Assembly: GCA_027068415.1 (NCBI GenBank) | Contig: JAMOTD010000007.1 | Coordinates: 1 to 64,000, forward strand | From: Desulfurobacteriaceae bacterium | Lineage (GTDB): Bacteria > Aquificota > Aquificia > Desulfurobacteriales > Desulfurobacteriaceae | Reading direction: 5' to 3' | DNA: 64,000 nucleotides | Shown: positions 10,641 through 49,281 of the stretch, piece after piece | Layout: each line of letters starts with the position of its first letter | Position numbering within the stretch: the first letter of the stretch is position 1 | The notes under the pieces: generated by a model | The model's database searches: none | What the model saw: the letters and a program-made list of their open reading frames with translations, nothing else | What the model was told of the DNA's origin: nothing | Position numbers and translations under genes: made by a program

Positions 10641-10641
10641 C

Positions 10642-11847: not shown

Positions 11848-11857
11848 AGGAGGAAAG

Positions 11858-12709: not shown

Positions 12710-12744
12710 TACACTATGGCTGACAAAAGCGGGGAGTTTGGGAA

Positions 12745-34286: not shown

Positions 34287-34964
34287 ATGGAGTTTAAAAG
34301 GTGGAGAAACTTAGGAGAAATTCTACCTGAAGAGGTGGAGGAGTTTATCGGCTCCTTCTTTGAAAGGGAAGAGCTCTTAAGGGAAGTTGAGGAGTTTGCA
34401 AAGAAAGAGAAAGTCCCGATTCTTCTCCCCTCAAGCGCTCAAGTCCTGAGGCTGATTGTTTCCCTCAAAAAGCCCCGTAAAGTCCTTGAGATAGGAACGG
34501 GAATAGGCTACAGTACTCTCAACATCTACCTCGCCCACCCCGAAGCAGAGATAACAACCGTTGACTCCAACATCAAGAGGCTAAAGGTTGCGGAGGGGTT
34601 CTTTAAAAGGGCAGGAATTCCGGTTGAAACGGTTGAAGCCGACGGCCTTGACTTTTTAAGGGAAGCCCTCTCCGAAGGGAGGAAGTACGACTTCATCTTC
34701 GTTGACAGCGCTAAAGGGGAGTATCCCTTCTTCAACTACAAAGTTCAAGCCCTACTTAAGCCGGGAGGCTTAGCCCTCTTTGATAACGTCCTCTTTAGGG
34801 GCTACGTGGCAGGGCGGGAGCACGATGGAAGGTATAAAAGGGGAGTGAAACTCTTAAAGCACTTCTTGAAGTACATAAAGGAGTACCCCAACTTCAGAGC
34901 TTACCTAATCGGAGTGGGAGACGGCCTTCTCCTCCTTGAAAATCTCGGATATAATAGAAGGTGA
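34287..34964 (+). CDS. SAM-dependent O-methyltransferase (family 3, TrmR-like)
   Basis: The 225-residue protein belongs to the COMT-like O-methyltransferases. It has KVLEIGTGIGYSTLNIYLA (SAM motif I, near residue 65), ITTVDSNIKRLKVAEGFFKRAG split around 92, KYDFIFVDSAKGEYPFF (metal and SAM site near 133) and LLKPGGLALFDNVLFRG. In bacteria this class includes TrmR, which methylates 5-hydroxyuridine in tRNA, and caffeoyl-CoA-type enzymes; TrmR is a reasonable guess but unproven. Its 3' end holds the promoter of the molybdate operon. Confidence 0.83.
   Translation: MEFKRWRNLGEILPEEVEEFIGSFFEREELLREVEEFAKKEKVPILLPSSAQVLRLIVSLKKPRKVLEIGTGIGYSTLNIYLAHPEAEITTVDSNIKRLKVAEGFFKRAGIPVETVEADGLDFLREALSEGRKYDFIFVDSAKGEYPFFNYKVQALLKPGGLALFDNVLFRGYVAGREHDGRYKRGVKLLKHFLKYIKEYPNFRAYLIGVGDGLLLLENLGYNRR
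34950..34955 (+). promoter_or_regulatory. -10 box of the mod operon inside the methyltransferase gene
   Basis: A perfect TATAAT lies in the last codons of the methyltransferase gene. The expected start, six to eight bases on, falls at the first base of the P1 stem of the structured leader (34964), which supports the call. The -35 region is not convincing. Confidence 0.5.
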
Positions 34965-35105
34965 GGTTCCGAGCCTGACTGCCTAAGGGGCTTAAAGCCC
35001 TATGGGGTCAGGCCGATAGGGTGCGTCTGGAAACGGGCGTGCCTCCCGGGCTTGGAAAGGAACCTCGTTAAAGGGGTCAGTTCCGGCTCGGGGCTGACCC
35101 CTTTT
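34964..35105 (+). ncRNA. Structured leader upstream of modA, candidate Moco/Tuco-type riboswitch with terminator
   Basis: The 225-base space before modA folds well. P1 pairs AGGTTCC (34964-34970) with GGAACCT (35059-35065) and is extended by GAGCC (34971-34975) with GGCTT (35049-35053). Inside, GCCTGAC (34973-34979, sharing its first three bases with that extension) pairs with GTCAGGC (35007-35013) around a smaller GGGCT/AGCCC hairpin. GGTGCGTCTG (35020-35029) pairs with CGGGCGTGCC (35034-35043) across a GAAA tetraloop. Then AAAGGGGTCAG (35070-35080) and CTGACCCCTTT (35094-35104) form an 11-bp terminator stem before TTTT. GGCTCGG in its loop (35085-35091) could pair instead with CCGAGCC (34969-34975), which gives a switching route. 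Place and shape suit the molybdenum-cofactor riboswitch known ahead of moa and mod genes. The family call is not verified. Confidence 0.6.
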
Positions 35106-35127
35106 GACTTATAGGAGCAGTCCCGTA

Positions 35128-35185
35128 GGAGGCCCAACCGGGCACCTCCCCAACTTTTGGTCGGGCCCTCCCCTTTAAGGAGGTG
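35128..35185 (+). promoter_or_regulatory. Second leader hairpin that can mask the modA ribosome site
   Basis: GGAGGCCCAACC (35128-35139) can pair with GGTCGGGCCCTCC (35159-35171) with one bulge. CACCTCC (35143-35149), in its loop, is fully complementary to the ribosome-binding GGAGGTG (35179-35185) just before the modA ATG. The two pairings would form at the same time only as a pseudoknot, so they may be alternatives. It suggests translational control on top of the terminator. Confidence 0.45.
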
Positions 35186-35189
35186 AGAG

Positions 35190-35906
35190 ATGAGGCTGTT
35201 AGTCTTAATTATAACCTTTCTGCTCCTTCCCTCCCTCGCTTCGGCCGGAGAAATCCTGATTTCAAGCGCAGCCGGAATGATGGAGTTCATAAAGGAGGTA
35301 GGGAAGGAGTTTGAAAGGAGAACGGGAAAAGAGGTAGTTTTCAACTTCTCATCTTCGGGAAAGATTGCAAAACAGATAGAGGCAGGAGCTCCCACCGATC
35401 TCTTTATCTCCGCCTCAAAGTTCTGGATAGACTACCTGAAAAGGAGGGGATTGATAGAGAAAGAGACCGCCATTCCCTTCGCTTCAACAGAGCTGGTGGT
35501 AGTAGCTCCCAAGGGCTCAAAGTTAAACTCACTCCTTGAGGCCGAAACGGTAGCAGTGGGGAACAAATTTGCTCCTGTAGGAGCTTATGCCCTTGAAAGC
35601 CTTAAGAGATTAGGGCTCTACGAGAAACTAAAGAGCAGGTTAATTTACGCTCCAAACGTAAGGCAGATAACCCTTTGGGTAATGTCAGGAAATGCCGACG
35701 CCGGAATTATTTACTATTCCGACTTCGTTAAGTACAGAAAAAAACTAAAGCCGCTTAAAGTCCTGCCCGAAAATAGCCACAGTCCGATTGAGTTCTTTGC
35801 CGCCTGTACTGGGAGCTCCCTAAAGGAGTGTAGGGAGTTTGAGGAGTTTTTAAAGGAGCTCCCCGATGAAGTTTACGAAAAGTACGGCTTTAAGAAGGTA
35901 AAATGA
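35190..35906 (+). CDS. modA: Molybdate ABC transporter substrate-binding protein
   Basis: ModA captures molybdate or tungstate in the periplasm for the ModBC importer. The 238-residue protein has a signal peptide ending ASA (residue 19), ISSAAGMMEFIKEVGKEFE, VVFNFSSSGKIAKQIEAGAP split near residue 55, and DLFISASKFWIDYL, with the oxyanion-binding Ser residues. VMSGNADAGIIYYSDFV near 170 is also typical. AAGGAGGTGAG precedes the ATG. modB overlaps by four bases. Mo versus W preference cannot be told here. Confidence 0.95.
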   Translation: MRLLVLIITFLLLPSLASAGEILISSAAGMMEFIKEVGKEFERRTGKEVVFNFSSSGKIAKQIEAGAPTDLFISASKFWIDYLKRRGLIEKETAIPFASTELVVVAPKGSKLNSLLEAETVAVGNKFAPVGAYALESLKRLGLYEKLKSRLIYAPNVRQITLWVMSGNADAGIIYYSDFVKYRKKLKPLKVLPENSHSPIEFFAACTGSSLKECREFEEFLKELPDEVYEKYGFKKVK

Positions 35907-36577
35907 GCCTGAGCCCTGAAGTCCTCTTCTCAATAAAGCTATCACTGAAGGTTTCCCTCCTTGCAACTCTCCTTATCTTCCTCACAGGCCTTCCCCTGGC
36001 CTACCTGCTGGCCTACAGAGAGTTCAAACTGAAAAACTTCCTTGATGCCCTCATAACCCTCCCTCTGGTCTTCCCTCCGGTAGTCACGGGCTACATTCTG
36101 TTGCTCATCTTCGGCAAAAAAGGTTTACTCGGGGAGCTCCTCTTTAAGCTCTTCGGCTTCACCGTAGTCTTTAACTGGAAGGGGGCTCTCCTTGCCTCAT
36201 TCGTGGCAGCCTTCCCAATCTTCGTTAAAGGAGCAAGAGCTTCACTTGAAGCAGTTGACAGAAGACTAATAGAGGTCTCCTACACCCTCGGTAAGGGCAG
36301 GATTGAGACTTTCTTCAGGATTACCTTTCCGCTGGCAAAACAGGGGATAACCGCCTCTTTAATCCTTTCCTTTGCAAGGGCTTTAGGAGAATTCGGAGCA
36401 ACCCTGATGGTTGCGGGAAATATCCCTATGAGAACAAACACAATTCCCCTTGAGATTTACAGCGCAATCTCTGAGGGAGATTTCGGGAAGGCGAACCTTC
36501 TAACCGCTTTAACAGCCCTCTTTTCGGTTGCGGTAATCTACGCAGTCAACAGGCTCAGCGGCGGGAGAAAAGTTTGA
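35903..36577 (+). CDS. modB: Molybdate ABC transporter permease
   Basis: Inner-membrane permease with about six helices over 224 residues. It has PLAYLLAYREFKLKNFLDAL, LPLVFPPVVTGYILLLIFG (a ModB hallmark) and the ABC-coupling loop SYTLGKGRIETFFRITFPLA followed by ALGEFGATLMVAGNIP. Overlaps modA and modC by four bases each. Confidence 0.95.
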   Translation: MSLSPEVLFSIKLSLKVSLLATLLIFLTGLPLAYLLAYREFKLKNFLDALITLPLVFPPVVTGYILLLIFGKKGLLGELLFKLFGFTVVFNWKGALLASFVAAFPIFVKGARASLEAVDRRLIEVSYTLGKGRIETFFRITFPLAKQGITASLILSFARALGEFGATLMVAGNIPMRTNTIPLEIYSAISEGDFGKANLLTALTALFSVAVIYAVNRLSGGRKV

Positions 36578-37611
36578 TAGAGGTTAAGGTAGAGAAAAGG
36601 TTAAAAGACTTTAAGCTAAAAGTAAGTTTTTCCTCCCGGGCACCGATAACGGCCTTTTTTGCACCTTCTGGCTCGGGAAAGAGCTTAACCCTACAGACGA
36701 TAGCAGGACTCATAAAACCCGACAAGGGAAGGGTAGAGGTTAACGGAAAGCCCTTCTTTGACTCGGAAAGGGGGATTGACCTCCCGCCCCAGAAGAGGAA
36801 AGTTGGCTACCTCTTTCAGGATTACGCCCTCTTTCCCCACATGACAGTCTTTGAAAACGTCGCCTACGGGGCAAGAAGTAGGGACAAGGTTTACGAGCTC
36901 CTTAAAACTTTGAAAATAGAAAAGCTGAAGGATAAGTACCCGAGCCAAATTTCCGGAGGACAGAAGCAGAGGGTAGCCCTTGCGAGGGCGCTTGCAACAG
37001 AGCCTGAGATTCTCCTCCTTGACGAGCCCTTCTCCGCCCTTGACAGGAGTTTAAAGGAGGAGCTCTACGGTGAAATCAGGGAGGTTCAGGAGAAGTTTAA
37101 AGTTCCTGTAGTCCTCGTAACCCACGACCACGAGGAGCTCTTTGAGCTTGCCGGCTGGATTGTAATTCTTGAGGAGGGAAGGAGCGTTCAGGAGGGAAGG
37201 CCGCAGGAACTCTTCTTTAACCCATCCTCTCTGAAGACGGCAAAACTACTCGGGCACAGGAGCTTTATTGAGGCAACGGTTGTGGAGGTCGGTAAGAGCT
37301 CCCTCGTAAAGCTCCCCTCGGGTAAGCTCTTAAGGTGCAGAAAGGGAGAGTTCAGGCCGGGAGATAGGGTTTTCGTCTCAATTCTTCCGAACTCCCTCTC
37401 CCTTTCACTGACTGACGAGGTAAACAGGGTAAAAATGGTCGTGAGGAGAGTCAAGAAGGGAATGGAGATTGACAAAATATTTGCCCTCTTTGAGGGAAAA
37501 GAGGTGGAGCTCCACCTTCCATCCTCCCTCTCCCCCAACTTCCTCTTTCAGGAGGGAAGGGAGAGTACGTTCTACCTATCGGTAGAGCACCTACCACTAA
37601 TCAGGAGGTAA
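36574..37611 (+). CDS. modC: Molybdate ABC transporter ATP-binding protein
   Basis: The 345-residue protein has Walker [17 protein letters not shown] (near 30), the Q-loop [13 protein letters not shown], the ABC signature [16 protein letters not shown] and Walker [20 protein letters not shown], with the H-loop [10 protein letters not shown]-terminal domain (about 225-345) contains a MOP/TOBE-like molybdate-binding region ([20 protein letters not shown]). The start is TTG overlapping the modB TGA in TTGA. Confidence 0.93.
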
Positions 37612-37613
37612 AG

Positions 37614-38636
37614 ATGAAGAGAAAAGTAAAGGTAGAGGAAGCGGTGGGAATGGTTCTCGTTCACGACATCACAGAAGTCAATCCCGAAAAAGGCTTCAAG
37701 GGAAGAGCTTTTAAAAAGGGGCACATAATAAGGGAGGAGGATGTTGAGAAGTTAAAGAGTTTGGGGAAGGAGTACGTCTACGTTTTGGAGCTCTCGGATG
37801 ACGAAATTCACGAAGATGAGGCGGCAAAGCTCCTTGCCGACGCCATTATGGGGGAGAACCTCTACAGGGACGAAGAGCCCAAAGAGGGGAAAATCAACAT
37901 CTACTCCGAGGTCTTCGGAGTTGTAAAGATAGATACCGAGAAGCTCTTCAAGTTCAACATGGTGGGGGAGCCCTCCTGCCCCACAATCCATACAAACATG
38001 TGGGTTAAGCCCGGCCAAAAGGTTGCTGCCGTAAGGATAATCTCCCTGACGGCTCCCAAAAGGGAGATTGACGAGGCAGTTGAGATAGCCGGAGAGGGAA
38101 TAATAAGAGTTGTTCCCTTTAAGGAAAAGAAGGCCGGAATGATAATAACGGGGAACGAGGTCTATTCCGGGAGAATTAAGGATAAGTTCTACGAAAAGTT
38201 AAAGCCCAAACTTGAGTTCTTCAAGTGTACCGTTGAGGAGAAGGTAATCCTCCCCGACGACGAGGAGATGATAAGAAAAAAGATTAGAGAGTTTGCCGAT
38301 AAGTACGACATAGTCGTCCTGACCGGAGGAACGTCGGTTGACCCCGACGACGTCACCTACAGGGCTATAAAGAGCGCTGGGGCAGAGAACTTTCTAAGGG
38401 GAAACCCTATTCAGCCGGGAAACATGCTGACGATGGGCTGGATTAACGGGAAGCCCTTGGTGGCCGTTCCGGCAGCAGCCCTCTTCTTTAAGGCCACCTC
38501 CTTTGACGTATGGCTCCCGAGACTCCTGATAGGGGATGTAATAACCAGGGAAGAGGTTGCAGCAAAGGGACACGGAGGGCTGTGCCACAGCTGTCCGGTT
38601 TGCGTATTCCCAATATGTCCGTTCGGAAGACCTTAA
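37614..38636 (+). CDS. Molybdopterin-binding (MoCF domain) protein with Cys-rich tail
   Basis: The 340-residue protein has a C-terminal half like MoeA/Mog[21 protein letters not shown] near 172, [19 protein letters not shown] near 235, and [20 protein letters not shown] with [10 protein letters not shown]. It ends in [20 protein letters not shown], four to five Cys that could hold a metal or Fe-S cluster. The MoeA domain 1/2 plan is not complete; the N-terminus contains [15 protein letters not shown], a MoeA-like opening. Such proteins accompany moeA in anaerobes, and their role, perhaps sensing or handling molybdopterin, is not established. It lies 10 bases before moeA. Confidence 0.8.
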
Positions 38637-38646
38637 GGAGGACAAG

Positions 38647-39855
38647 GTGAAGGTAGAGAGGGAAGAGGCAAAGAGGATAATTGAGGAGAGAGTAAAAGAG
38701 GTAGGTGTAGAAGAGATAACCCTCAACGAGGCCTACGGAAGGGTTATAGCTCAGGACATTTCCTCTCCCGTTGACATTCCCGACCAAGATAAGTCGGCAA
38801 TAGACGGCTTTGCATTTAACACGGCCTCACTGAAGGAGCTCCCAGCAAGGTTAAAAATCGTGGGAGAGAGCCCGGCAGGGAGCTCCCGAAGGTTAAAAGT
38901 GGGCGAGGGTGAGGCCGTCTTTGTAATGACGGGAGGGGTAATACCCGAGGGGGCAGATGCGGCAGTTAGAATTGAGGATGTTAAGGTTAAAGGAAACGAA
39001 GTTCTCATAGACTTCCCGGTAGAAAAGGGAAACCTCGTAAACTTCAGGGGAAGCGAGGTAAAGAGGGGAGAGAAGGTAATTGAAAAGGGAGAGCTCCTAA
39101 GCTACCGGTTGGTAGGCCTCCTTGCCCACTTGGGAGTTTACAGGGTAAAGGTCTTCCAGAGAGTAAAGGTGGGAGTAATAACAACGGGAAGCGAGGTCCT
39201 TGAGCCCGAAGAGCCCTTCAGAGAAGGGGCAGTAAGGAACACGAACTTTTACACCCTTAAAGGACTCGTTGAGAAGTTAGGAGCAGAGGTTATCTACTTA
39301 GGGAAGGCAAGAGACGAAAAGGAAGAGCTAAAGGAGTTAATCGGAGAGGCCCTCTCAACCTGCCACTTTACGGTAACAACCGGTGGAGTCTCAAAGGGTA
39401 AGTACGACCTCGTGAGGGAAACGGTCAGGGAACTCGGAGTTGAAGTACTCTTTACCCAAACAAACGTAAGACCGGGAAGACCTTTAACCTTCGGAGTAAA
39501 AGGAGATAAGCTCTTCTTCGGTCTTCCCGGCTACCCGGCGGCAACTCTGGTAAACGCCCTTGAGTTTCTCGCTCCGGCCGTAAAAAAAGCCTGCGGTTTA
39601 AAGGAGTTTAAAAACAGGTACGTCAGCGCCGTTGCTGCAGGAGAGCTCAGGTCAAGGAAGGGAAGGGTTGACTTCGTCAGAGTCAAACTCTCCTCTGAAG
39701 GGGGGATTCTAAAGGTCTTCCCTGAAGGAAGCCAGCAGACGAGCAACTTCCTGACAATGGCCCGGTGTCAAGGCCTTGCGGTTATAGGTCAGGAGAGGGG
39801 AACCGTAAAAGAGGGCGAAACCGTAGAGGTTTTAATTCTGGAAAATTTTTTATAA
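38647..39855 (+). CDS. moeA: Molybdopterin molybdenumtransferase MoeA
   Basis: MoeA inserts molybdate into adenylylated molybdopterin. The protein shows VEREEAKRIIEERV, DIPDQDKSAIDGFAFN, VMTGGVIPEGADAAVRIED, VGVITTGSEVLEPEEPFREG (from about 178), VTTGGVSKGKYDLVRE and RPGRPLTFGVKGDKLFFGLPG across adjoining blocks. I start at GTG 38647 (402 residues), which follows AAGGAGGACAAG and begins at the usual family N-terminus; an upstream start would add 30 residues lying within the end of the previous gene. Confidence 0.94.
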   Translation: MKVEREEAKRIIEERVKEVGVEEITLNEAYGRVIAQDISSPVDIPDQDKSAIDGFAFNTASLKELPARLKIVGESPAGSSRRLKVGEGEAVFVMTGGVIPEGADAAVRIEDVKVKGNEVLIDFPVEKGNLVNFRGSEVKRGEKVIEKGELLSYRLVGLLAHLGVYRVKVFQRVKVGVITTGSEVLEPEEPFREGAVRNTNFYTLKGLVEKLGAEVIYLGKARDEKEELKELIGEALSTCHFTVTTGGVSKGKYDLVRETVRELGVEVLFTQTNVRPGRPLTFGVKGDKLFFGLPGYPAATLVNALEFLAPAVKKACGLKEFKNRYVSAVAAGELRSRKGRVDFVRVKLSSEGGILKVFPEGSQQTSNFLTMARCQGLAVIGQERGTVKEGETVEVLILENFL

Positions 39856-39950: not shown

Positions 39951-39980
39951 TTGACATAGAATCAAAATCTTTTGTAATAT
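39951..39980 (+). promoter_or_regulatory. Sigma-70-type promoter of the cytochrome operon
   Basis: TTGACA (39951-39956), 18 bases, then TAATAT (39975-39980), in a clearly AT-rich stretch of the 158-base gap after moeA. The first gene starts 34 bases on at GTG 40014, after GAGAGGG. This is the best promoter match in the window. GAATTG repeats upstream (near 39890-39907) could be an activator site, but I see no clear FNR or two-component box. Confidence 0.7.
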
Positions 39981-40013: not shown

Positions 40014-41276
40014 GTGGGGATAGGAAAGAGAGTTCTGGCGCTGGGACTGGGGATAGGACTCCTCTCGGCAGGCGGCGCCCAGGCCGCAGTTAACCTACCC
40101 GGATATGAAGGCGAGCTTAAGACCCAGATAGAGTTTCGTCAGGACGTTTACGACAGGGACTCTATCCCCTTTGACAACTACCTAAAGCTTGACCTGAGGG
40201 ATTTAAAGGGCTCAAGCGAGCTTCACTTCTACGGAAAGCTCTGGAAAGACTTAGGCTACGGAACTGACTGGGACATAGACCTCTACCAGCTCTACGTTGA
40301 CGTTCCGATAAAAAAGGATAGGAGTTCCACCCTCTCTATAGGTCGCCAGTTTATCTCCGAAGGCTTTGAGACCTACATAGCCGACTCAATTAAGTACTCC
40401 CACAGGTTGAATAAAGATTTCAGGTACGTCTTTTACTTGGGAAAGCCCAGGTGGTTTGAGCCGGGAGTAAAGAGCGGAGACGACTTCTTAGCCGGCTTTA
40501 AGTTTGAGTATAAAAACTACTTCCTCGGCTTTGAGCACCTGAGAGACGACGGCAAGGTTAAAAAGAGCTCCCTCCTTTTCGGAAACTACTCCTACTTAAC
40601 AAAGGAGCTTGTCCAGTTCAGCAGGTTTGAGGTTGACCTTGCCCACGGGGAGCTCGTAAGCGGCAACTTAGGATTTAACTACTACCCCACAAAGAAGCTG
40701 AGGCTAACAACGGAGCTTGAGTACTACGACGGCTCCTACAGGTACGACGGAAGGATTGAAGACCCGATATTTAAAAACTTTTCTCCTGAAGGAAGGGAGC
40801 TCCGCTTCACCCAGAGCGCTTACTACCAGCTAAACCCCGTCTGGGCCCTTTTTGGCTCCTACACTGCAACCGATATCCAGAGGAACGGCAAGGATAACGG
40901 CCACCTTCTAAAAGTCGGAGCAGTCAGGGATACTTGGTTCACAGAGGGCCTTAGGACTTACGGGGCTCTCCTATACCAGAACAGCTGGATAGGAATCCTC
41001 AGGGGAGTTGAGTTAGGGTTTACCAAGTACCTCTGCAGGAAAATCTCTTTAACGGGAAGGGTTGACATAGCCCGCTACGACAAAATTACCTACGGCAAGC
41101 AGTGGGCAAACGCCTACTACCTCAAGGGAACTTATCAGGCAACCGACTTCTCAAACCTTGAAGTGGGAATTGACTACAGGAAGAACGAGGACTTTGACAG
41201 GGATTTAAGGCTGATTCTCAGGTACAACCTCCTCTTCTGGGGCGGAAAGGAAAAAAGGACAGAGGATAGGAAATGA
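40014..41276 (+). CDS. Outer-membrane beta-barrel protein of the cytochrome operon
   Basis: The 420-residue protein has a signal peptide (GIGKRVLALGLGIGLLSAGG, cut after AQA near 24), then alternating aromatic and polar strands to the end with no helix or heme motif: DNYLKLDLRD, SELHFYGKLWK, TLSIGRQFISEGF, RYVFYLGKP, and a late strand LRLILRYNLLFWGG. It looks like a porin-type barrel of about 16-18 strands; I recognise no named family. As first gene of a multiheme operon it fits the barrel of a porin-cytochrome conduit (MtrB-like in role, not in recognised sequence). It overlaps the next gene, a 7-heme lipoprotein, by four bases. Confidence 0.78.
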   Translation: MGIGKRVLALGLGIGLLSAGGAQAAVNLPGYEGELKTQIEFRQDVYDRDSIPFDNYLKLDLRDLKGSSELHFYGKLWKDLGYGTDWDIDLYQLYVDVPIKKDRSSTLSIGRQFISEGFETYIADSIKYSHRLNKDFRYVFYLGKPRWFEPGVKSGDDFLAGFKFEYKNYFLGFEHLRDDGKVKKSSLLFGNYSYLTKELVQFSRFEVDLAHGELVSGNLGFNYYPTKKLRLTTELEYYDGSYRYDGRIEDPIFKNFSPEGRELRFTQSAYYQLNPVWALFGSYTATDIQRNGKDNGHLLKVGAVRDTWFTEGLRTYGALLYQNSWIGILRGVELGFTKYLCRKISLTGRVDIARYDKITYGKQWANAYYLKGTYQATDFSNLEVGIDYRKNEDFDRDLRLILRYNLLFWGGKEKRTEDRK

Positions 41277-41872
41277 GGAAAGCACTGCTCCTTGCTGTAA
41301 TAGCTTTAACGGCTTCCTCCTGTACCAACGAGTGTAAGGTTGACTACAAGAAGGAGCTCGGGACTACGGCCAAGTTCCACCACAGGGAGCACAAGGCTTT
41401 CATTGACGAACACGGCTGTATCCCGTGCCACAAAATGAACGTTGAGATGAGCTGGGCAGACATTGAGGCGGCAGAGAGGGGCTCAAAGAAAATCATTATG
41501 CCCTCTAAGGTAACGTGTCACTACTGCCACAACAACCCGAGCAAATCTCCGGCCCCCAACGCCCCGACGAAGTGTTATATCTGCCACTTCAACATGAAAG
41601 AGATTGAGCCAGTTGACCACAAGACTGGCGACTGGCTTAAAACCCATAAGTTCGCATACGAGGCAAAGGCGAGCAGGTGCGATGAGTGCCACAGACAGAA
41701 GTTCTGTATAGACTGCCACGCAAGGAGAGACACAATCCAGCACCTGGTTCACCCAAGGAACTACGAGTACACCCACAGCATAGAGGCGGCCGCAGACCCG
41801 GCCAAGTGTAGCAGGTGCCACAGGCCAACATTCTGTATGGAATGCCATACAAAGGGGAACTGGACGAGATGA
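41273..41872 (+). CDS. Seven-heme cytochrome c, probable lipoprotein
   Basis: The 199-residue protein opens with a signal and lipobox-like ALTASSC (Cys17), so it is probably a lipoprotein. It holds seven CXXCH motifs: CIPCH, CHYCH, CYICH, CDECH, CIDCH, CSRCH and CMECH, with extra His (FHHREHK, DHKTGDW, HPRNYEYTH) as likely second ligands. CHYCH offers two possible His. No catalytic domain is seen. An outer-membrane anchor next to a barrel gene is what a conduit needs, though the membrane destination cannot be fixed from sequence. ATGA overlap with the next gene. Confidence 0.85.
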   Translation: MRKALLLAVIALTASSCTNECKVDYKKELGTTAKFHHREHKAFIDEHGCIPCHKMNVEMSWADIEAAERGSKKIIMPSKVTCHYCHNNPSKSPAPNAPTKCYICHFNMKEIEPVDHKTGDWLKTHKFAYEAKASRCDECHRQKFCIDCHARRDTIQHLVHPRNYEYTHSIEAAADPAKCSRCHRPTFCMECHTKGNWTR

Positions 41873-42738
41873 AGAAGGGACTAATTGCTTTACTTCTCTT
41901 AACCGGAATGATTGGAAGCGCCCGGGCACAAGAGTGCGGAGGAATCGGCTACACGGGAACCGACGCCGAGTTCTGCCTTAAGTGCCACGCCGACGGCTGC
42001 CCGATAGTTCACCCAACCGGGTGCAAAGTAAAAGAGACAGAGTGTATAAAAGTTCCCCCTAACTTCCCGCTCAACAGGGGTAAGCTGACCTGTACAACCT
42101 GCCACGACATGAAGAGCAAGAACGAGAACTTCCTGAGGGCTGAGAGACCCTTAAGAGAGAGGTTTGACTTCTGCTTCCAGTGCCACAACCCCGAGTGCTA
42201 CAAAAAGTTTAACCCCCACGAAACAATCGGAGAGAATGTTCCTTGGGACAAGAAAAAGAAGGCCTGCATCTACTGCCACGGAGTAGGAGCAAAGCTTGAG
42301 GCCTACAAGGCCTGTGTAGGCTGCCATACAAAAACTCCCCACGTGGGAGCTCCCGAGCACCTCCTTGCAAAGAGGGAAAAGGTTGAGAAGCTGGTAAAGG
42401 GCAAGGCTCAAGTTGTTGAAATAGAGGACATGGCTCAGCTAAAACCGGAAATCAACGAAAATGAGCTCAAAAAGCGCAAGCCGAAGGTAATCTTAGTAAA
42501 GGGAAGGATTGAGTGTATAACCTGCCACAACCCTCACCCTCAAATAGCAGTTCCCGCCCCTGCCGAGGATAAGGAGTGGGCGGAAGTTGAAAGGAGAGAC
42601 CTTGACTACAAACTTGAAAAGCTGAGGCTTGAGCTAAACAGGTTAAAGCTGAACACAAAAGGCGTGAAATTAATGAGCTACCAGCTTAAAGGCGGAAAAC
42701 TTTGTCAAATCTGCCACTCAATTAACTCGCTAAAGTAG
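41869..42738 (+). CDS. Seven-heme periplasmic cytochrome c
   Basis: I chose the ATG at 41869 because MKKGLIALLLLTGMIGSARA is a clean signal peptide and the ATG overlaps the preceding TGA; an upstream start would add 18 residues. The 289-residue protein has CLKCH, CTTCH, CFQCH, CIYCH, CVGCH, CITCH and CQICH, seven hemes. A heme-free stretch of about 70 charged residues separates hemes five and six, and a basic coiled-coil-like stretch (ERRDLDYKLEKLRLELNRLK) separates six and seven. The paired pattern (CTTCHD..., CHNPHP) recalls doubled-CXXCH cytochromes. Confidence 0.85.
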   Translation: MKKGLIALLLLTGMIGSARAQECGGIGYTGTDAEFCLKCHADGCPIVHPTGCKVKETECIKVPPNFPLNRGKLTCTTCHDMKSKNENFLRAERPLRERFDFCFQCHNPECYKKFNPHETIGENVPWDKKKKACIYCHGVGAKLEAYKACVGCHTKTPHVGAPEHLLAKREKVEKLVKGKAQVVEIEDMAQLKPEINENELKKRKPKVILVKGRIECITCHNPHPQIAVPAPAEDKEWAEVERRDLDYKLEKLRLELNRLKLNTKGVKLMSYQLKGGKLCQICHSINSLK

Positions 42739-42748
42739 GGGGTAGAGA

Positions 42749-43843
42749 GTGAAAGCCTTGATTTTAGGACTGAGCGGGGCTATAGCTATATCGGGAGCGG
42801 CTCTCGGAGCCGGGATACCTGACGACGGGTGTCTGGTCTGCCACAGGCTTAAAGGACTATCGGTAATTACAAAAGAGAACGAGGTGAAGGACTGCAGCAT
42901 CTCAGATGCCCTTTACGCCCACTCAATCCACAGGAACGTGGGGTGTACCGAGTGTCACGATAAGGTTGAGCAGTACCCCCACAAGCCTGAAAACACAGCT
43001 GCAAACTGTACCAACAAGTGCCACGTGGTAGACCCTTCAACGAAGAAGCCTTTCTCCCACAAAGAGGTATTTGAGACCTGGAAGGAGAGCGTCCACGGTA
43101 AGAACTACGAGAAAGCCCCCGACATCTACCCCTACTGTAGTTACTGCCACACAAACGACCTTCTCATAGACGTAACGAAACTTGAGTCAATGAAAATGAG
43201 CCTCGCAAAGTGCTCAATCTGCCACCAGAACAAGGACTGGATAAAGGACAGGTTCTCCCACGTTGCAAGCAGAGAGCCAATTCCCGTTATAAAGAACGGC
43301 TTTACCCACCGGTTCGTAAAGACCAGAAGGGACGGCTGGGAGATTGTTGAGCTGTGTGCATCCTGCCACGAGGACGAGAAGAAGATGGAAAAAGCCCTTG
43401 AAATAGAGGGAATTCACGATAAGTTCGCAAAGGAGCACGTCTTAACGGCCGTTGAGTCCTACAAGGTTACGATGCACGCAAAAATGCTCTACCTTGACAG
43501 GAACGATACAAGGGCTGCAGACTGCCTTGACTGCCACACCAACAAGGACGGCAACTTCCACGACATCTTCCACAAAGACGACCCTCGCTCCTCAATTAAC
43601 GTTAAGAACATTGAGCTAACCTGCGGTCGCTCTACAGAGTGCCACCCCCTTGCTCCCAAGGAGGACATGAAGAACTTCGCCACTACCAAATGGGTTCACA
43701 TGCACCCGATTCCCGACTCTTTAGGACAGAAAATCGTAAAGATTGTTGAGGAATTTATGTTCTGGCTTACAACCGGAACGCTACTCTTTGCAGTTACTAT
43801 CGTAGGCCTTGACCTTCTTAAAAACCTGAGGAGGAAGCACTAA
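42749..43843 (+). CDS. Membrane-anchored cytochrome c with six canonical and two atypical heme motifs
   Basis: The 364-residue protein has a signal sequence, CLVCH, CTECH, CSYCH, CSICH, CASCH and CLDCH, plus CTNKCH (CX3CH, near residue 90) and CGRSTECH (CX5CH, near 292), so up to eight hemes. A membrane helix near 333-357 (FMFWLTTGTLLFAVTIVGLD) and a basic end anchor it in the inner membrane, heme domain outside. Its last base is the first base of the cytochrome b gene. The pair resembles in layout the multiheme c plus HydC/FdnI-type b module of Geobacter CbcL, here as two genes. Likely role: take electrons from a quinol-oxidising cytochrome b. Confidence 0.82.
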   Translation: MKALILGLSGAIAISGAALGAGIPDDGCLVCHRLKGLSVITKENEVKDCSISDALYAHSIHRNVGCTECHDKVEQYPHKPENTAANCTNKCHVVDPSTKKPFSHKEVFETWKESVHGKNYEKAPDIYPYCSYCHTNDLLIDVTKLESMKMSLAKCSICHQNKDWIKDRFSHVASREPIPVIKNGFTHRFVKTRRDGWEIVELCASCHEDEKKMEKALEIEGIHDKFAKEHVLTAVESYKVTMHAKMLYLDRNDTRAADCLDCHTNKDGNFHDIFHKDDPRSSINVKNIELTCGRSTECHPLAPKEDMKNFATTKWVHMHPIPDSLGQKIVKIVEEFMFWLTTGTLLFAVTIVGLDLLKNLRRKH

Positions 43844-44775
43844 TGGGACTCTGGGAGGCTTTCAAGAGAAGATTTAGGTTAAGAGCAGAGCAGGATAAGC
43901 TTCTCATCGTTGACGGTGAGAAGATAATGATACAGAAGTTTACCCTCTTCCAGAGGCTGCTCCACGTAGGAATTTTCTCAACCTTCATCTGGCAGATTAT
44001 TACCGGATATCCCCTAAAGTTCTACGAGCTTGAGTGGGCAAAGCCCCTCATAGGGCTCCTCGGCGGAATAGCCGGTGAAATGACGATTCACAGGATTTCC
44101 GGTTTCATAATGTTTGCTGACTTCCTCCTCACGGTTTTCTACATGATTCTAATCCTCATAGCAAACTGGGATTTGGCCAAAAAGGATTTCTTCGGCTACT
44201 TCAAAATCGTTCCCGGCCCGTCAGACGTTACGTTTGTCCACTACATAAAGTATCTTTTAGGCTTCAGAAAAGTTCCCCCCGACTGGGACGAGTACATCTG
44301 GGTTGATAAGTTTGACTTCTGGGCGGTCGGTTGGGGTATGCTTGCAATCGGTATTACCGGCTGGATGCTCTGGCTCCCGGAGGTCTTTACCGGCTATCTC
44401 GGACTTCCCCCCGAGACGATTCAGATTGCCTACCTGATGCACTCAGACGAGGCAGTCTTAGCACTGGGTTGGATTGCCCTCGTCCACATGTACATAGTCC
44501 ACTACGGCCCCAACAAGTTCCCTATGGACTGGATTTGGCTCACCGGAACGGCCTCTGAGGTTGAGTGGATTGAGGAAAGGCCCAGAAGCTATAGAAGAAT
44601 CATCAAGGCGGTTGCAGAGAACGAGCCCCACCTCCTTGAGAAGTACCCCTTCTTGAAGGAGAGGTACCAGTTTGTCTTAGAGGTGGAGAAGCTCCCCGAA
44701 GAGGAGATGATTAAGAGAATGCACGAGTATGCCCACCACCTTCTTGAGAAGGAAGCCGAAGGAGGGAAAGCGTAA
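43843..44775 (+). CDS. Diheme cytochrome b, FdnI/HydC-like quinone-reactive subunit
   Basis: The 310-residue protein has about four membrane helices (38-55, 85-108, 158-180, 203-222). His residues are placed to hold two b hemes: His41 (RLLHVGIF), His83 (TIHRISGF), His200 (LMHSDEAVLALGW) and His215/220 (LVHMYIVHYG). This is the plan of the formate dehydrogenase/hydrogenase gamma subunits that exchange electrons with menaquinone. The C-terminal 85 residues are a charged cytoplasmic tail. Its place between two multiheme genes marks it as the quinone entry or exit point of the chain. No molybdoenzyme or hydrogenase subunit lies in the operon. Confidence 0.85.
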   Translation: MGLWEAFKRRFRLRAEQDKLLIVDGEKIMIQKFTLFQRLLHVGIFSTFIWQIITGYPLKFYELEWAKPLIGLLGGIAGEMTIHRISGFIMFADFLLTVFYMILILIANWDLAKKDFFGYFKIVPGPSDVTFVHYIKYLLGFRKVPPDWDEYIWVDKFDFWAVGWGMLAIGITGWMLWLPEVFTGYLGLPPETIQIAYLMHSDEAVLALGWIALVHMYIVHYGPNKFPMDWIWLTGTASEVEWIEERPRSYRRIIKAVAENEPHLLEKYPFLKERYQFVLEVEKLPEEEMIKRMHEYAHHLLEKEAEGGKA

Positions 44776-45488
44776 TGAAAAGGCTCCTAATAGCTCTGAC
44801 GATAATTTCGGCAACGGCGGTTGCCGGGAACAACCCTCTCCTTGAGGCTCCCGCAACCGATGTGGCAAAGTGGGGAGAGAAGTTAAAGGAGTTTGAGAGG
44901 CCGGAGCTCCCCAACCTCAAGGAGTACCCTAAGCCCTTCCACTCCCCAAATGCCTACAAGTACCAGATGAACGACGTCTGTAGTACCTGCCACACCTTTG
45001 CCGCCCACAAAAAGGACGATAAGTACGCTCCCTTCTACAACGCCCACGGAACCTTTATGAGCTGTAACGTCTGCCACTTTGTTAAGGAGGGAGTGGAGTA
45101 CAGGTGGGCGGAGATTAAGGACGGCAAAGTGGTAGTCCTTGACAAGGGAGACTTCTACGGCCTGAAGTACGTTCAGGTAGGCGACAGGGTAATGCTCTCT
45201 GGGCAGGAGAGCTCTGCAAAGATAGTTCCGGTCTATAACGGCACTCCGGTAGAGCTCCCCCTAAAAGGAAACGAAAACCTCCTCAGGGATAAAACGGCCG
45301 TAGCCAAGATGCACAACGCCCTAACGGAAGAAACTCTCAAGTGTGAAGACTGCCACCAAAAAGGCGGGAGGATAGACTTTAGGGCTTTAGGGTTCAGCCC
45401 CCAAAGGGTTAAAGACCTTGAGGAGAACGAAATCGTAAAAGGCCTCAAGGAGTACAAGACAATCCACTTCCCTAAATTTATCTGGTAG
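44775..45488 (+). CDS. Three-heme periplasmic cytochrome c
   Basis: The 237-residue protein has a signal peptide (cut after VAG, residue 18) and three CXXCH motifs: CSTCHTFAAH, CNVCH and CEDCH. His residues in FYNAHG and KMHNAL are candidate axial ligands. A beta-rich stretch between hemes two and three (about 110-165) contains VQVGDRVMLSGQE and may be a small domain. I do not recognise a named family. It overlaps cytochrome b by one base and probably relays electrons between the quinone module and other cytochromes. Confidence 0.8.
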   Translation: MKRLLIALTIISATAVAGNNPLLEAPATDVAKWGEKLKEFERPELPNLKEYPKPFHSPNAYKYQMNDVCSTCHTFAAHKKDDKYAPFYNAHGTFMSCNVCHFVKEGVEYRWAEIKDGKVVVLDKGDFYGLKYVQVGDRVMLSGQESSAKIVPVYNGTPVELPLKGNENLLRDKTAVAKMHNALTEETLKCEDCHQKGGRIDFRALGFSPQRVKDLEENEIVKGLKEYKTIHFPKFIW

Positions 45489-45500
45489 GGGTAAAAGGAG

Positions 45501-46304
45501 ATGAGAGCTCTCTTCACAGCGCTTTTCCTCTTGATTATGTCCTTAACGGCCGTAGCTCAGGAGATAAAGGGAGACTGGAAGTTCCCCTCTGACATAGCCG
45601 TTGCAAACGGAAAGCTCTACGTAGTTGACGGTTTAAACAACAGGATTGCCGTCTACGACCTCTACGGAGAGCACCTGACAGACATAAAAGTTGACAGCCC
45701 CTACGGTATAGACGTTTCGGACGGCCTACTCTACGTAGTGAGCCAGAAGGGAAAGCTTTACGTCCTTGACGAGTTCGGAAACCTTGAAAAGAGCTTTGGC
45801 GTTGCCGGAAGGCCCATAGACGTTGAGAAGTTTGGCAGAAAGCTCTTCATAACAAACGGCAAGTTTGAGAGCGTTGACATCTACTCTACAGCGGGAGAGT
45901 TCCTGGGAAGGTTCGGTGAGAAGGGAACGGCACCGGGGAACTTCGTGGGAATATTCCTTCTTGACTCTGCAAAGAAAACACTCTTTGTAGTTGACAGCGT
46001 AAACGCAAGGATTCAGGAGTTTGATAAAAACGGAAACCTGTTAAGGAGCTTCGGAGTTTTCGGAATAGAGGAGGGCGACCTCTTCAGGCCCAAGGGAGTT
46101 GCCTACTGCGGAGACGGAAAGGTTGCAGTTTCGGACGCCATAACCGGAGCCGTTCAGCTCTTTGACGTTTACGGAGGCTTTGAGAGGGTAATAGCAAAAG
46201 GGCTCTACTACCCCACAGCTATTGCCTGCTACGAGGGAGAGCTCTTCGTCCTTGAGCCTCTGAAAAACAGGGTATCCACATTTAGAGTTCAAGGGGTCAA
46301 GTAA
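45501..46304 (+). CDS. Secreted NHL-repeat beta-propeller protein
   Basis: The 267-residue protein has a signal peptide (cut near AQE, residue 20) and about six NHL-type blades: PSDIAVANGKLYVVDGLNNR, YGIDVSDGLLYVVSQKGKLY, PIDVEKFGRKLFITNGK, LDSAKKTLFVVDSVNARIQE, PKGVAYCGDGKVAVSDAIT and PTAIACYEGELFVLEPLKNR, each about 40 residues apart. No heme motif or catalytic signature. NHL proteins occur beside multiheme cytochromes in several metal-reducing or syntrophic bacteria, where they may act as scaffolds; role here is inferred. It shares one base with the 24-heme gene. Confidence 0.85.
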   Translation: MRALFTALFLLIMSLTAVAQEIKGDWKFPSDIAVANGKLYVVDGLNNRIAVYDLYGEHLTDIKVDSPYGIDVSDGLLYVVSQKGKLYVLDEFGNLEKSFGVAGRPIDVEKFGRKLFITNGKFESVDIYSTAGEFLGRFGEKGTAPGNFVGIFLLDSAKKTLFVVDSVNARIQEFDKNGNLLRSFGVFGIEEGDLFRPKGVAYCGDGKVAVSDAITGAVQLFDVYGGFERVIAKGLYYPTAIACYEGELFVLEPLKNRVSTFRVQGVK

Positions 46305-48976
46305 TGAGGAAATCGCTGGCTATCCTCCTGACCATACTTGCCGTCTCAACAACGGCAGAGGCAAAACTCAAAAAGAGCATGAAGAAGGAGTGTCTCGTCT
46401 GCCACGAGAACTGGCTCCTTGAGGCAAAGGTTAAGTCTCCCAAACTCCTAACTGCCCGCTCCTTCACTGCAACCGATAAACTGATGTGCCTCTCCTGTCA
46501 CGACGGCTCAATGGCAGACGACAGGCTAACTTTCTTGGGCTTTAAGCACTTCTCCCACCCGGTTGACAAAAAAGTTCCCGAGGACTTCAAGATACCCAAA
46601 GGCTTCCCCCTTAAAGACGGAAAGCTCTACTGCGGAACCTGCCACACTCCCCACACGGAGACCGGAAGCGAGAAGAAGCTTGACTACACCTTCATGAGGA
46701 AGCCCAACGTCAACTCGGCCCTCTGTGTTGCCTGCCACAAGGAGAACTCAGAGCACGGAATAAACCACCCGATTTTTGAGGATACTAAAGACAAACTAAA
46801 GCCCCAGTTAGCAGCAGAGGTAGAGAAGTTAGGGGGAAGGCTAACAGAGAACAGGGAGCTGACCTGTGAGTCGTGCCACTCGGCCCACAGGGGAAGGGCA
46901 AAGAGGACGCTCCTTGAAAGGGCCGATAACTCAACCCTGTGTGCCGTCTGCCACATAGATAACGTAAACTCCAAGGAGCACCCTAACTTCAGGAACCACC
47001 CGATTCACAAGAAGTTCCCCGAAGGGGCAGACGTAGCCTTTTTTAAGAGCAAGAAGGCGGTACTTGAGAGCGTAGAGTGTATGACCTGCCACAAAGTCCA
47101 CAAGGAGAAGAATAAGCACCTCGTTGTAGCTCCCGAGAAGGAGCTCTGCATCCTCTGCCATACCGACCAGAAGTGGGTAAACAAGACAAAGCACAACGTA
47201 GCGGGCAATTCATGTAAGAGCTGCCACACTCCCCACAAGGCAAAGGGCAGGGAGCTGTGGAGCAGGCCGATACCCGAAGAGGCCTTTGACTACGCATCCC
47301 TCATTGAGGCAAGGGGCAAGGACGATATCCTGTGTCTCTCCTGCCACTACCCCCAGAGCAAAATCAACGGTAAAGAGTGCCCGGATGTAGGCACTTTAAC
47401 CCACCCGACCGGCAAAAAGGTTAAGGAGAAGGTAAAGCTCCCCTTACCCGGCGGTAAGCTCTCCTGTACAACGTGCCACGATCCCCACCACTCCTTTAAC
47501 AGAAGTCCGAAGGGTAAGTTCCTGAGGAAGGAGAGGTCGGAGCTCTGCTACACCTGCCACAGGGAAGAGGCAGACGTTAAGAGGGGAGCCCACGGAAAAA
47601 TTGACGAGAAGAGGTGGAAGAAGGGCGACTGTGCGGCCTGCCACAACGTCCACAAAGCCAAGGGCGGCTACCTCTCAAGGGTTGTTTACGGAGAGATTTC
47701 ACCGATGGAGCCCCCCGTTGACGGCTTCTGTCTGGCCTGCCACGACCCCGAGGGAATGGCAGAGCACAAGGTTAAGCAGTCTGTCTTTAACGAGCACCCT
47801 GTAGGGGTTAAGAACCCGAGCAATAAGCTGCCAGGTAAGAAAATCTCATGTGCAACCTGCCACGACCCCCATACCCATAAAGAGGAGCTCCTCAGAATTC
47901 CCGTAAGGAAGGACTCAAAGCTCTGTTTAACCTGCCACACAGACCAGAACCTTGAGGGAACTCCCCACGACCTCTTAAGCAGCTCAGAGGTCAAGCTGAG
48001 CAGGAAGGAGAGGGAAGAGCTCCTTAAGAAGGGTAAGTGTTCGGCCTGCCACACTCCCCACAACCCCGAGTTTAAGGTACTCTGGGCAAGGAAGCCCGGT
48101 AAAGGTAAAACAATAGGAGAAAAACTCTGTCTCTCATGCCACGCCGAAGGGAAATTAGCAGAGAAGGCAACGGTAGGGGAGCACTCCCACCCGATTGGAA
48201 GGGAGATTACCGAGAAGAATCTTGAGATGATTAAGAGCTCAAGGCTCCCCCTTATTGACCAGATGACCGGACACCCTGCAAGGAAGGGAGAGCAGGGGGT
48301 CTTTGACTGTACAACCTGCCACGAGCCCCATAACGGTGCAGATAAGAAGAGGTTAACAAGGTACGTAGTTGAGGGAAACAGCCCCCTCTGTACCTCCTGC
48401 CACGTCCAGCAGGCCAAGGTAATCGGAACAGAGCACGACATGAGGGTCGTCAAGAAGAACTTTAAAAACGCCCTCGGTAAGGAAGTTCTCAAAGACGGCG
48501 TCTGTTCGGCCTGCCACGTTCCCCATAGGGCTAAAGACAAGCTCCTCTGGGCATTTAACGTTAAAAAGATTACCGATAACAGAATGTCCAACTACTGTTT
48601 AACCTGCCACTCAAAAGACGGAGTAGCAAAAGAAAAGGTTGTAAAAGAGTACTACCACCCCAGCAAGGACGTAGTAGTAAGGAACTTTGACAGGCCCGGC
48701 AGAGAGGGAGACTGGCCTATATTTACTAAAGAGGGTAAAAAGGTTCACGCAGGAGGAGAAATTGCCTGTGAGACCTGCCACGAGCCCCACGTCTGGAGCA
48801 GGTGGCAGAAAGAAGCTCCCGGTAAGCCCGTTGAGGGCAACGCTCTTAACAGCTTCCTCAGGAACAAAGACCTCAGGGGAAGCATCTGCGTTGACTGCCA
48901 CGGCTTAGACGCCCTTTACAGGTATAAGCTCTTCCACACGAAGAAGGCTCATCAGGAAAAGCCCTCTTACAAGTAG
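46304..48976 (+). CDS. 24-heme cytochrome c, doubled-CXXCH type
   Basis: The 890-residue secreted protein has a signal peptide (cut near AEA, residue 20) and I count 24 CXXCH motifs spread evenly, from CLVCH near residue 30 to CVDCH near 870. The common form is CxxCHxPH or CxxCHxxH (CGTCHTPH, CESCHSAH, CMTCHKVH, CATCHDPH, CETCHEPH), the pattern of doubled-CXXCH domains, in about a dozen loose repeats of 60-80 residues. HP and HPIG/HPVG motifs between them supply axial His. No membrane anchor is evident. It could form a long conductive arm or filament unit, or an extracellular terminal reductase. Confidence 0.92.
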   Translation: MRKSLAILLTILAVSTTAEAKLKKSMKKECLVCHENWLLEAKVKSPKLLTARSFTATDKLMCLSCHDGSMADDRLTFLGFKHFSHPVDKKVPEDFKIPKGFPLKDGKLYCGTCHTPHTETGSEKKLDYTFMRKPNVNSALCVACHKENSEHGINHPIFEDTKDKLKPQLAAEVEKLGGRLTENRELTCESCHSAHRGRAKRTLLERADNSTLCAVCHIDNVNSKEHPNFRNHPIHKKFPEGADVAFFKSKKAVLESVECMTCHKVHKEKNKHLVVAPEKELCILCHTDQKWVNKTKHNVAGNSCKSCHTPHKAKGRELWSRPIPEEAFDYASLIEARGKDDILCLSCHYPQSKINGKECPDVGTLTHPTGKKVKEKVKLPLPGGKLSCTTCHDPHHSFNRSPKGKFLRKERSELCYTCHREEADVKRGAHGKIDEKRWKKGDCAACHNVHKAKGGYLSRVVYGEISPMEPPVDGFCLACHDPEGMAEHKVKQSVFNEHPVGVKNPSNKLPGKKISCATCHDPHTHKEELLRIPVRKDSKLCLTCHTDQNLEGTPHDLLSSSEVKLSRKEREELLKKGKCSACHTPHNPEFKVLWARKPGKGKTIGEKLCLSCHAEGKLAEKATVGEHSHPIGREITEKNLEMIKSSRLPLIDQMTGHPARKGEQGVFDCTTCHEPHNGADKKRLTRYVVEGNSPLCTSCHVQQAKVIGTEHDMRVVKKNFKNALGKEVLKDGVCSACHVPHRAKDKLLWAFNVKKITDNRMSNYCLTCHSKDGVAKEKVVKEYYHPSKDVVVRNFDRPGREGDWPIFTKEGKKVHAGGEIACETCHEPHVWSRWQKEAPGKPVEGNALNSFLRNKDLRGSICVDCHGLDALYRYKLFHTKKAHQEKPSYK

Positions 48977-48987
48977 GAGGTTGAGAG

Positions 48988-49137
48988 ATGGCAAGGGAAG
49001 TAAGCTCAAGGGACATAGAGAAGGAGGCCTGGATAGTCTTAGCGGCCACCCTCTCAGTTCTGCTCCTACCGATTTTGGGAGTGTGGTTCGTTAAGTTTGT
49101 CCACTGGTATGCAGAGTCCTTCTTCATGTGGTTATAA
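48988..49137 (+). CDS. Small one-helix membrane protein of the cytochrome operon
   Basis: A 49-residue protein starts at ATG 48988 after TAGGAGGTTGAGAG, an excellent ribosome site. It has a charged head (AREVSSRDIEKEAW), one membrane helix (IVLAATLSVLLLPILGVWFV) and an aromatic end with His39. It ends at TAA 49135-49137. I recognise no family. Operon position and ribosome site argue that it is real; it may stabilise the cytochrome b complex. Confidence 0.75.
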   Translation: MAREVSSRDIEKEAWIVLAATLSVLLLPILGVWFVKFVHWYAESFFMWL

Positions 49138-49146
49138 GGAGGAGAG

Positions 49147-49281
49147 ATGGCGAGCAAGGCCCTGAAAACAATCTTCGGCTTCAGGAAGTGGATAGCCTCG
49201 GTTGAGATTATCCTCTACATTATAATGCTCCTTACCCTCCTCAGCACCGCTTATCACCACCTTATGGGGGGAGGCCACTAA
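49147..49281 (+). CDS. Second small one-helix membrane protein of the cytochrome operon
   Basis: A 44-residue protein from ATG 49147, after AAGGAGGAGAG. It has a basic head (ASKALKTIFGFRKW), a helix (IASVEIILYIIMLLTLLSTA) and a tail YHHLMGGGH with three His. It ends at TAA, and the next gene starts at the following base. The His-rich end facing one side of the membrane could ligate heme or metal. No known family recognised. Confidence 0.75.
   Translation: MASKALKTIFGFRKWIASVEIILYIIMLLTLLSTAYHHLMGGGH

What the first reader, a model, noticed from the sequence alone, without database searches (positions are those of the whole stretch)
40014..49281. Ten-gene porin, multiheme cytochrome and cytochrome b operon: a candidate quinone-to-exterior electron conduit
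Seen: a barrel protein, a 7-heme probable lipoprotein, a 7-heme, an up-to-8-heme membrane-anchored, a 3-heme and a 24-heme cytochrome, a diheme cytochrome b, an NHL propeller and two one-helix proteins. Nearly all are joined by overlaps or gaps of 13 bases or less, behind a strong promoter. Known: porin-cytochrome conduits (MtrCAB, Geobacter Omb/Oma/Omc) and Cbc-type quinol modules exist as separate loci in metal reducers. Inference: this operon holds the full path in one unit in a thermophile carrying reverse gyrase. It could serve mineral or extracellular electron transfer, or, in reverse, electron uptake. It has no recognisable terminal reductase, so a 24-heme exterior protein may be the contact point.
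Basis: partly seen in the sequence, partly recalled or inferred. Interest (0 to 1): 0.88.

Follow-up and report, generated by a model that had tools for sequence, protein, structure and literature searches.

The report
Thermovibrio porin-cytochrome electron conduit operon
The ten genes are real and most likely encode a wire of about fifty hemes carrying electrons from the inner-membrane quinone pool out through the outer membrane; the barrel part was already published in 2014 for close relatives, but the same whole unit is shown here to recur, with its two gene blocks in the other order, in a different phylum that includes iron reducers.

Summary
In detail: ten same-strand genes at 40014-49281, with 49 c-type heme motifs (7+7+8+3+24) and a b-type cytochrome with five invariant histidines outside its tail. 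The eight-heme count is right (six CX2CH, one CX3CH, one CX5CH, all invariant). The "strong promoter" is not better than chance. The window is from a Thermovibrio relative. Cytochrome b is found in 21 of 22 Desulfurobacteriaceae genomes. Shi et al. 2014 (PMC4245776) already listed this locus in T. ammonificans (Theam_0871) and D. thermolithotrophum (Dester_0351) as porin-cytochrome clusters, so the idea is not new. What I add: (1) the barrel belongs to the system: single copy, always with the two 7-heme proteins, and barrel plus 7-heme lipoprotein recur as neighbours in Deferribacterota; (2) the five genes octaheme/cytochrome b/triheme/NHL/24-28-heme are collinear with the Deferribacter "19-gene cluster" proposed for Fe(III) reduction; (3) one Desulfurobacteriaceae genus and a sister family keep these five genes without the barrel, so the 24-heme protein goes with the inner-membrane part and is probably not the outer contact point. 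Better candidates for that are the 7-heme lipoprotein and two other cytochromes encoded elsewhere in this genome. Direction, acceptor and protein locations are untested.

The parts
39951..39980 (+). promoter-like TTGACA-18-TAATAT, 34 bases before the barrel start
   Evidence: 10 of 12 matches, but 4 sites found in the region against 4.2 expected: suggestive by position only
40014..41276 (+). outer-membrane beta-barrel (porin of the conduit), 420 aa, GTG start, Sec signal
   Evidence: alignment A3; 22 strands, pLDDT 69.9; only in this operon; profile match to Deferribacterota barrels, prob 95.7, E 1e-8
41273..41872 (+). c7a: 7-heme c-type lipoprotein, 199 aa, lipobox Cys17; seven CXXCH plus seven further invariant His (all hemes probably bis-His)
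41869..42738 (+). c7b: 7-heme c-type cytochrome with Sec signal, 290 aa (earliest start 41815)
42749..43843 (+). octaheme c-type cytochrome with N-terminal signal and C-terminal membrane helix (orthologue of Theam_0871 / Dester_0351)
   Evidence: PMC4245776
43843..44775 (+). cytochrome b of the Ni_hydr_CYTB / Cbc type; invariant His41, 83, 200, 215, 220
44775..45488 (+). triheme c-type cytochrome
   Evidence: conserved next gene in all core loci
45501..46304 (+). NHL-repeat beta-propeller, Sec signal, no heme motif
   Evidence: (PF01436 3.8e-11)
46304..48976 (+). 24-heme c-type cytochrome (doubled CXXCH family), Sec signal, no lipobox, no membrane helix; 13 to 28 hemes in relatives
48988..49137 (+). 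49-aa one-helix protein, conserved in all core operons of the order
49147..49281 (+). 44-aa one-helix protein, conserved in many but not all operons

Best explanation
A porin-cytochrome extracellular electron transfer unit. Cytochrome b with the octaheme and triheme proteins (a split CbcL/CbcBA-like complex, with the one-helix proteins as possible small subunits) exchanges electrons with menaquinol in the inner membrane. The 24-heme protein, probably with the NHL protein, relays them across the periplasm. The barrel holding a 7-heme protein, with the 7-heme lipoprotein on one face, passes them through the outer membrane. Surface cytochromes encoded elsewhere (8-heme lipoprotein; 7-heme sorted protein) probably take over outside. 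Outward flow to a solid or large acceptor (S0/polysulfide or Fe(III) mineral) is more likely than uptake. Shown: gene content, motifs, order conservation, linkage across phyla. Inferred: complexes, positions, direction, acceptor.
For: Ten intact genes with invariant heme motifs. Barrel predicted with 22 strands, within the 18-22 given for Pcc porins (PMC4245776). Barrel, c7a and c7b occur together and are lost or truncated together. Barrel plus c7a adjacent in six Deferribacterota loci, five in one family, downstream of the same five-gene core (c7a E 7.8e-31 to 8.8e-34; barrel profile match E 1e-8 and 9.9e-40). Cytochrome b relatives in other phyla are often fused to multiheme domains as in CbcL-type proteins. 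An MtrC-type 10-heme lipoprotein lies just upstream of the core in L113 (Mtrc-MtrF 5.2e-35). The core matches the Deferribacter 19-gene cluster proposed for Fe(III) reduction (PMC6896113, PMC13186404). Orthologues of this genome's two other large cytochromes lie right behind the operon in G005 and G006.
Against: No experiment on any member. Four genomes of genus g7 and one f2 genome keep the core without the barrel, so the core can work without this conduit. D. desulfuricans has the core but was not shown to reduce Fe(III) (PMC6896113). I found no report of Fe(III) or electrode use by Desulfurobacteriaceae. The barrel model is only moderately confident and its PDB matches are generic barrels, MtrB among them.
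Confidence: 0.72

Rival explanations
1. The core is a periplasmic electron-distribution module: quinol to octaheme to 24-heme pool, feeding soluble periplasmic reductases or acting as an electron store; the barrel is a later add-on.
For: Core without barrel in g7 and f2; 24-heme protein has a plain Sec signal without lipid anchor.
Against: Nitrate reduction (Nap) and two octaheme HAO-like proteins have their own locus in the same genome and in G022 (L167); barrel plus c7a are linked to the core in two phyla.
Confidence: 0.15
2. The unit works in reverse: electrons from minerals, metal or partner cells enter through the barrel to the quinone pool.
For: Nothing in the anatomy fixes direction; these are H2-oxidising autotrophs (PMC12724263).
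Against: Relatives with the core include Fe(III) reducers (PMC13186404); cytochrome b relatives resemble quinol-oxidising Cbc/CbcL proteins (family knowledge).
Confidence: 0.1
3. A dedicated S0/polysulfide respiration route (a narrower form of the best explanation): the conduit delivers electrons to sulfur outside the cell.
For: T. ammonificans and D. thermolithotrophum are S0 reducers with this cluster (PMC4245776); authors working on D. thermolithotrophum HR11 suggest that c-type cytochromes may pass electrons to polysulfide (PMC12724263).
Against: Cytoplasmic Nsr/TrxR were also proposed there; no link between these genes and sulfur growth was found.
Confidence: 0.3
4. The barrel is an unrelated general porin that happens to lie upstream.
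For: No family hit; PDB matches are generic barrels.
Against: Single copy, only in this operon, 4-base overlap with c7a, homologous barrel next to c7a homologues in another phylum.
Confidence: 0.04

Closest known systems
Pcc clusters of Thermovibrio ammonificans HB-1 and Desulfurobacterium thermolithotrophum (Shi et al. 2014, PMC4245776)
   Same: Same locus: octaheme with six CX2CH plus two atypical motifs (Theam_0871/Dester_0351, 79% identical there; 79.8% between G002 and G005 here); barrel with c-type cytochromes.
   Different: The passages I could read do not mention the separate cytochrome b gene, NHL or 24-heme; they guessed that the octaheme itself might bind b-hemes. The figure showing the gene maps could not be seen.
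Deferribacter 19-gene multiheme cluster (DEFDS_0741-60; PMC6896113, PMC13186404)
   Different: No homologue of this barrel or c7a detected there; a 794-aa secreted protein and other cytochromes follow instead; 24 rather than 28 hemes here.
Geobacter Omb/Oma/Omc porin-cytochrome complexes
   Same: Barrel, two multiheme proteins (one a predicted lipoprotein), adjacent genes.
   Different: No sequence-family hit; 7+7 hemes rather than 8+12; joined in one operon with the quinol module.
CbcL / CbcBA inner-membrane quinol-cytochrome c modules
   Same: Cytochrome b of PF01292 type with a multiheme partner; relatives in many phyla are fusions.
   Different: Split into octaheme, cytochrome b and triheme genes; joined to NHL and a 24-heme gene. 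Likeness recalled from family knowledge, no Geobacter sequence compared by name.
MtrCAB of Shewanella
   Same: Barrel plus multiheme logic; MtrB appears among generic barrel matches (rank 27).
   Different: No MtrB family hit, 22 instead of 26-28 strands, no decaheme MtrA.

Membership tests
[quoted passage not shown]
   AlphaFold2 model with 22 strands, pLDDT 69.9; range from PMC4245776
Porin-cytochrome (Pcc) gene cluster | adjacent gene for a periplasmic multiheme c-type cytochrome | tested here: met
   c7b, Sec signal, 7 CXXCH, in all 13 barrel-carrying relative loci read
Porin-cytochrome (Pcc) gene cluster | in most cases a lipoprotein outer-membrane c-type cytochrome | tested here: met
   c7a lipobox Cys17 and all seven heme motifs invariant also across phyla
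Porin-cytochrome (Pcc) gene cluster | barrel and cytochromes form a complex in the outer membrane | not testable with these tools
   needs fractionation and pull-down
Cbc-type quinol:cytochrome c module | multi-helix cytochrome b with His ligands for two b-hemes | tested here: met
   PF01292 1.2e-13; His41, 83, 200, 215, 220 invariant also in Deferribacterota
Cbc-type quinol:cytochrome c module | multiheme c-type partner encoded next to or fused with it | tested here: met
   octaheme upstream in all core loci of both phyla; 904-aa protein matching octaheme, cytochrome b and triheme models in L105
Cbc-type quinol:cytochrome c module | quinol oxidation | not testable with these tools
   biochemistry needed
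MtrCAB | MtrB/PioB-family barrel and decaheme MtrA | tested here: not met
   no Pfam or NCBIfam hit for the barrel; no ten-heme protein in the operon
Deferribacter 19-gene cluster | collinear octaheme, cytochrome b, triheme, NHL, 28-heme | tested here: met
   14 Deferribacterota loci with the five genes in order; 24 hemes instead of 28 in the window
Deferribacter 19-gene cluster | the rest of the cluster (13-heme, TPR, 8-heme, two-component genes, 794-aa protein) | tested here: not met
   absent around the window operon
Extracellular cytochrome filament (OmcS/OmcE type) | filament-forming cytochrome structure | tested here: inconclusive
   24-heme model failed, pLDDT 36; PDB sequence matches weak

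The most novel reading that the evidence does not exclude
A portable inner-membrane and periplasm module (octaheme, cytochrome b, triheme, NHL, 24-28-heme) is shared by Desulfurobacteriales and Deferribacterota and is fitted with interchangeable outer-membrane conduits (this barrel plus c7a, perhaps others, or none), so that one unit spans the whole envelope. This makes electron transfer through the outer membrane a family-wide trait of deeply branching vent autotrophs that I found no report of using it.
Probability: 0.45. Interest if true: 0.65.

Novelty: new member of a known kind. Interest (0 to 1): 0.5.

Why it matters
These are H2-oxidising, CO2-fixing thermophiles of hydrothermal vents, described in the papers read here as sulfur, thiosulfate or nitrate reducers. 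A conserved full electron path to the outside would mean that solid minerals, sulfur particles or partner cells can act as electron sinks or sources for them, and would tie the unexplained Deferribacter Fe(III)-reduction cluster to a defined porin-cytochrome partner. The barrel-less relatives offer a natural comparison that separates quinol-side from outer-membrane functions.

Tried and rejected
Nitrite-reductase reading: rejected as main function, since Nap and two octaheme HAO-like genes form their own locus. 24-heme as exterior contact: disfavoured by its retention in barrel-less operons. Scan of genome contigs with the cytochrome b alignment found only Desulfurobacteriaceae and one close relative because its peptide patterns were too specific; the genome search reached other phyla. 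Plasmid search of cytochrome b: none. Barrel alignment searched in 51 genomes of the Deferribacterota phylum: none by the loose first look; found later by reading downstream of the core. AlphaFold2 of the 24-heme protein failed. PDB fold search of the barrel gave generic barrels only. Cytochrome b tree: Desulfurobacteriales and Deferribacterota are each solid clades but are not shown to be sisters, so the route of descent or transfer is open; the case for a shared unit rests on five-gene order plus barrel and c7a homology. Literature searches for Desulfurobacteriaceae with multiheme cytochromes or cathodes gave nothing relevant; CbcL with NHL gave none. Pfam reads the 591-aa gene behind the g7 operon as a peptide-binding protein, so it is not a replacement conduit.
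Full report
OBSERVATION. The ten genes exist as described. They overlap by 1-4 bases or are 9-12 bases apart (the earliest start of c7b would overlap by 58). Counts of heme motifs are 7, 7, 8, 3 and 24, and cytochrome b has invariant His41, 83, 200, 215 and 220. The eighth heme of the membrane-anchored protein is real: C87-X3-C91-H and C292-X5-C298-H are invariant in 12 relatives. In the 7-heme lipoprotein, fourteen His are invariant across two phyla, seven in CXXCH and seven elsewhere, as expected for seven bis-His hemes. The promoter claim does not stand: one good site, but site numbers equal chance. The operon may read on into a deaminase gene, whose TTG start follows directly.

ORGANISM. 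A named-contig scan returned only Desulfurobacteriaceae, Thermovibrio and Desulfurobacterium records and one Aquificota MAG. G002 and G005 have chromosome lengths that I remember for T. ammonificans and D. thermolithotrophum. Their octahemes are 79.8% identical with six typical and two atypical motifs, which fits the published 79% for Theam_0871/Dester_0351 (PMC4245776). The window is in the same genus as G002.

DISTRIBUTION. Cytochrome b is found in 21 of 22 genomes of the family and one of two of a sister family. In 136 Aquificota genomes the octaheme is confined to these two families, apart from one marginal hit. G010 (98% complete) lacks it, an exception. Order is fixed: octaheme, cytochrome b, triheme, NHL, 24-28-heme (13 in f2), 49-aa helix. 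The barrel is found in 16 genomes, always single copy and in this operon. The barrel and c7b are absent in genus g7, where c7a survives as a short two-heme lipoprotein, and all three are absent in f2. These losses fall in few clades, so the co-occurrence is worth a handful of events, not twenty.

OTHER PHYLA. Among 389 genomes, cytochrome b relatives occur in dozens of families, many fused with multiheme domains. The same five-gene order recurs in 14 loci of the phylum of G233. That phylum is Deferribacterota: G443 has 2,234,389 bp, the length given for Deferribacter desulfuricans in PMC13186404; G447 and G450 match lengths that I remember for Flexistipes and Denitrovibrio. The core there is the published 19-gene cluster of Deferribacter (28-heme and 10-heme proteins; DEFDS_0743 is a cytochrome b561), called a possible (remnant) metal-reduction system. 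In five loci of family f103 a barrel, a c7a homologue (E 2e-30 to 9e-34) and an 8-heme protein follow further downstream, and L147 has barrel and c7a right after the 28-heme gene. Barrel homology: HMM 1.2e-8 for the G450 barrel, profile-profile probability 95.7 and E 1e-8, and 9.9e-40 between the f103 profile and the L147 barrel. So the same quinol module and the same barrel-lipoprotein pair lie in one locus in two phyla with the blocks in opposite order. This is the main new result and the best evidence that they work together. Shi et al. 2014 had already grouped the Denitrovibrio, Desulfurobacterium and Thermovibrio porins.

WHERE THE 24-HEME PROTEIN SITS. It is kept in barrel-less operons and has a Sec signal without lipobox. 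I read it as periplasmic relay more likely than surface protein, but secreted filament cytochromes also have plain Sec signals (own knowledge), so this is open. Structure prediction failed. Surface candidates in this genome: a 1178-aa 7-heme protein with a Gly-rich, hydrophobic, basic C-terminus (L004), and a 412-aa 8-heme lipoprotein (L047). Orthologues (59% and 52%) lie immediately behind the operon in G005 and G006, and an MtrC-type 10-heme lipoprotein lies ahead of the core in L113.

MECHANISM. Menaquinol -> cytochrome b -> octaheme/triheme -> 24-heme -> barrel with c7a/c7b -> surface cytochrome -> acceptor. Shown: parts, conservation, linkage. Inferred: every contact, direction, acceptor. 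Nitrate ammonification has its own locus (Nap plus two octaheme HAO-like proteins), which argues against this unit being the nitrate path. S0/polysulfide and Fe(III) are the leading acceptors.

NOVELTY. The kind, and this very locus in sister species, were published in 2014; the window adds a member. The cross-phylum unity with the Deferribacter cluster is not mentioned in the passages of the papers I could search (PMC13186404 and PMC6896113 do not name Thermovibrio or Desulfurobacterium), but absence from this library is no proof.

Noticed in passing
L005 (G000 contig 21) 216-1244: A 342-aa ten-heme protein with Sec-like signal, 54% identical to the middle of the 24-heme protein (residues 318-677): a short paralogue in the same genome.
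   Followed up: partly
L004 (G000 contig 14) 7327-10863, minus strand: About 1178-aa seven-heme protein ending in a Gly-rich, hydrophobic, basic tail like a C-terminal sorting signal; its orthologue lies next to the operon in G005 (L034).
   Followed up: partly
L003 7473-13802 and 2812-7449: Nap genes (NapC, NapM, NapA, NapD, NapG, NapH) with two octaheme HAO/HDH-like proteins: a probable nitrate-to-ammonium locus without NrfA nearby.
   Followed up: partly
window 34955-39855: Moco (molybdenum/tungsten) riboswitch ahead of mod transport and two molybdopterin biosynthesis (MoeA-like) genes just upstream of the operon; moeA-like neighbours recur in many but not all relatives.
   Followed up: partly
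L166 (G014) 5879-12867: A barrel-less g7 genome has another cluster of NHL, 8-, 5- and 6-heme and PPIase-like genes, perhaps an alternative surface cytochrome system.
   Followed up: no
L155 (D. desulfuricans by length) 9709-12093: 794-aa secreted heme-free protein in the 19-gene cluster that may be a large barrel replacing the conduit.
   Followed up: no
G010: A 98% complete genome of the family lacks cytochrome b, octaheme and barrel altogether: real loss or assembly gap.
   Followed up: no
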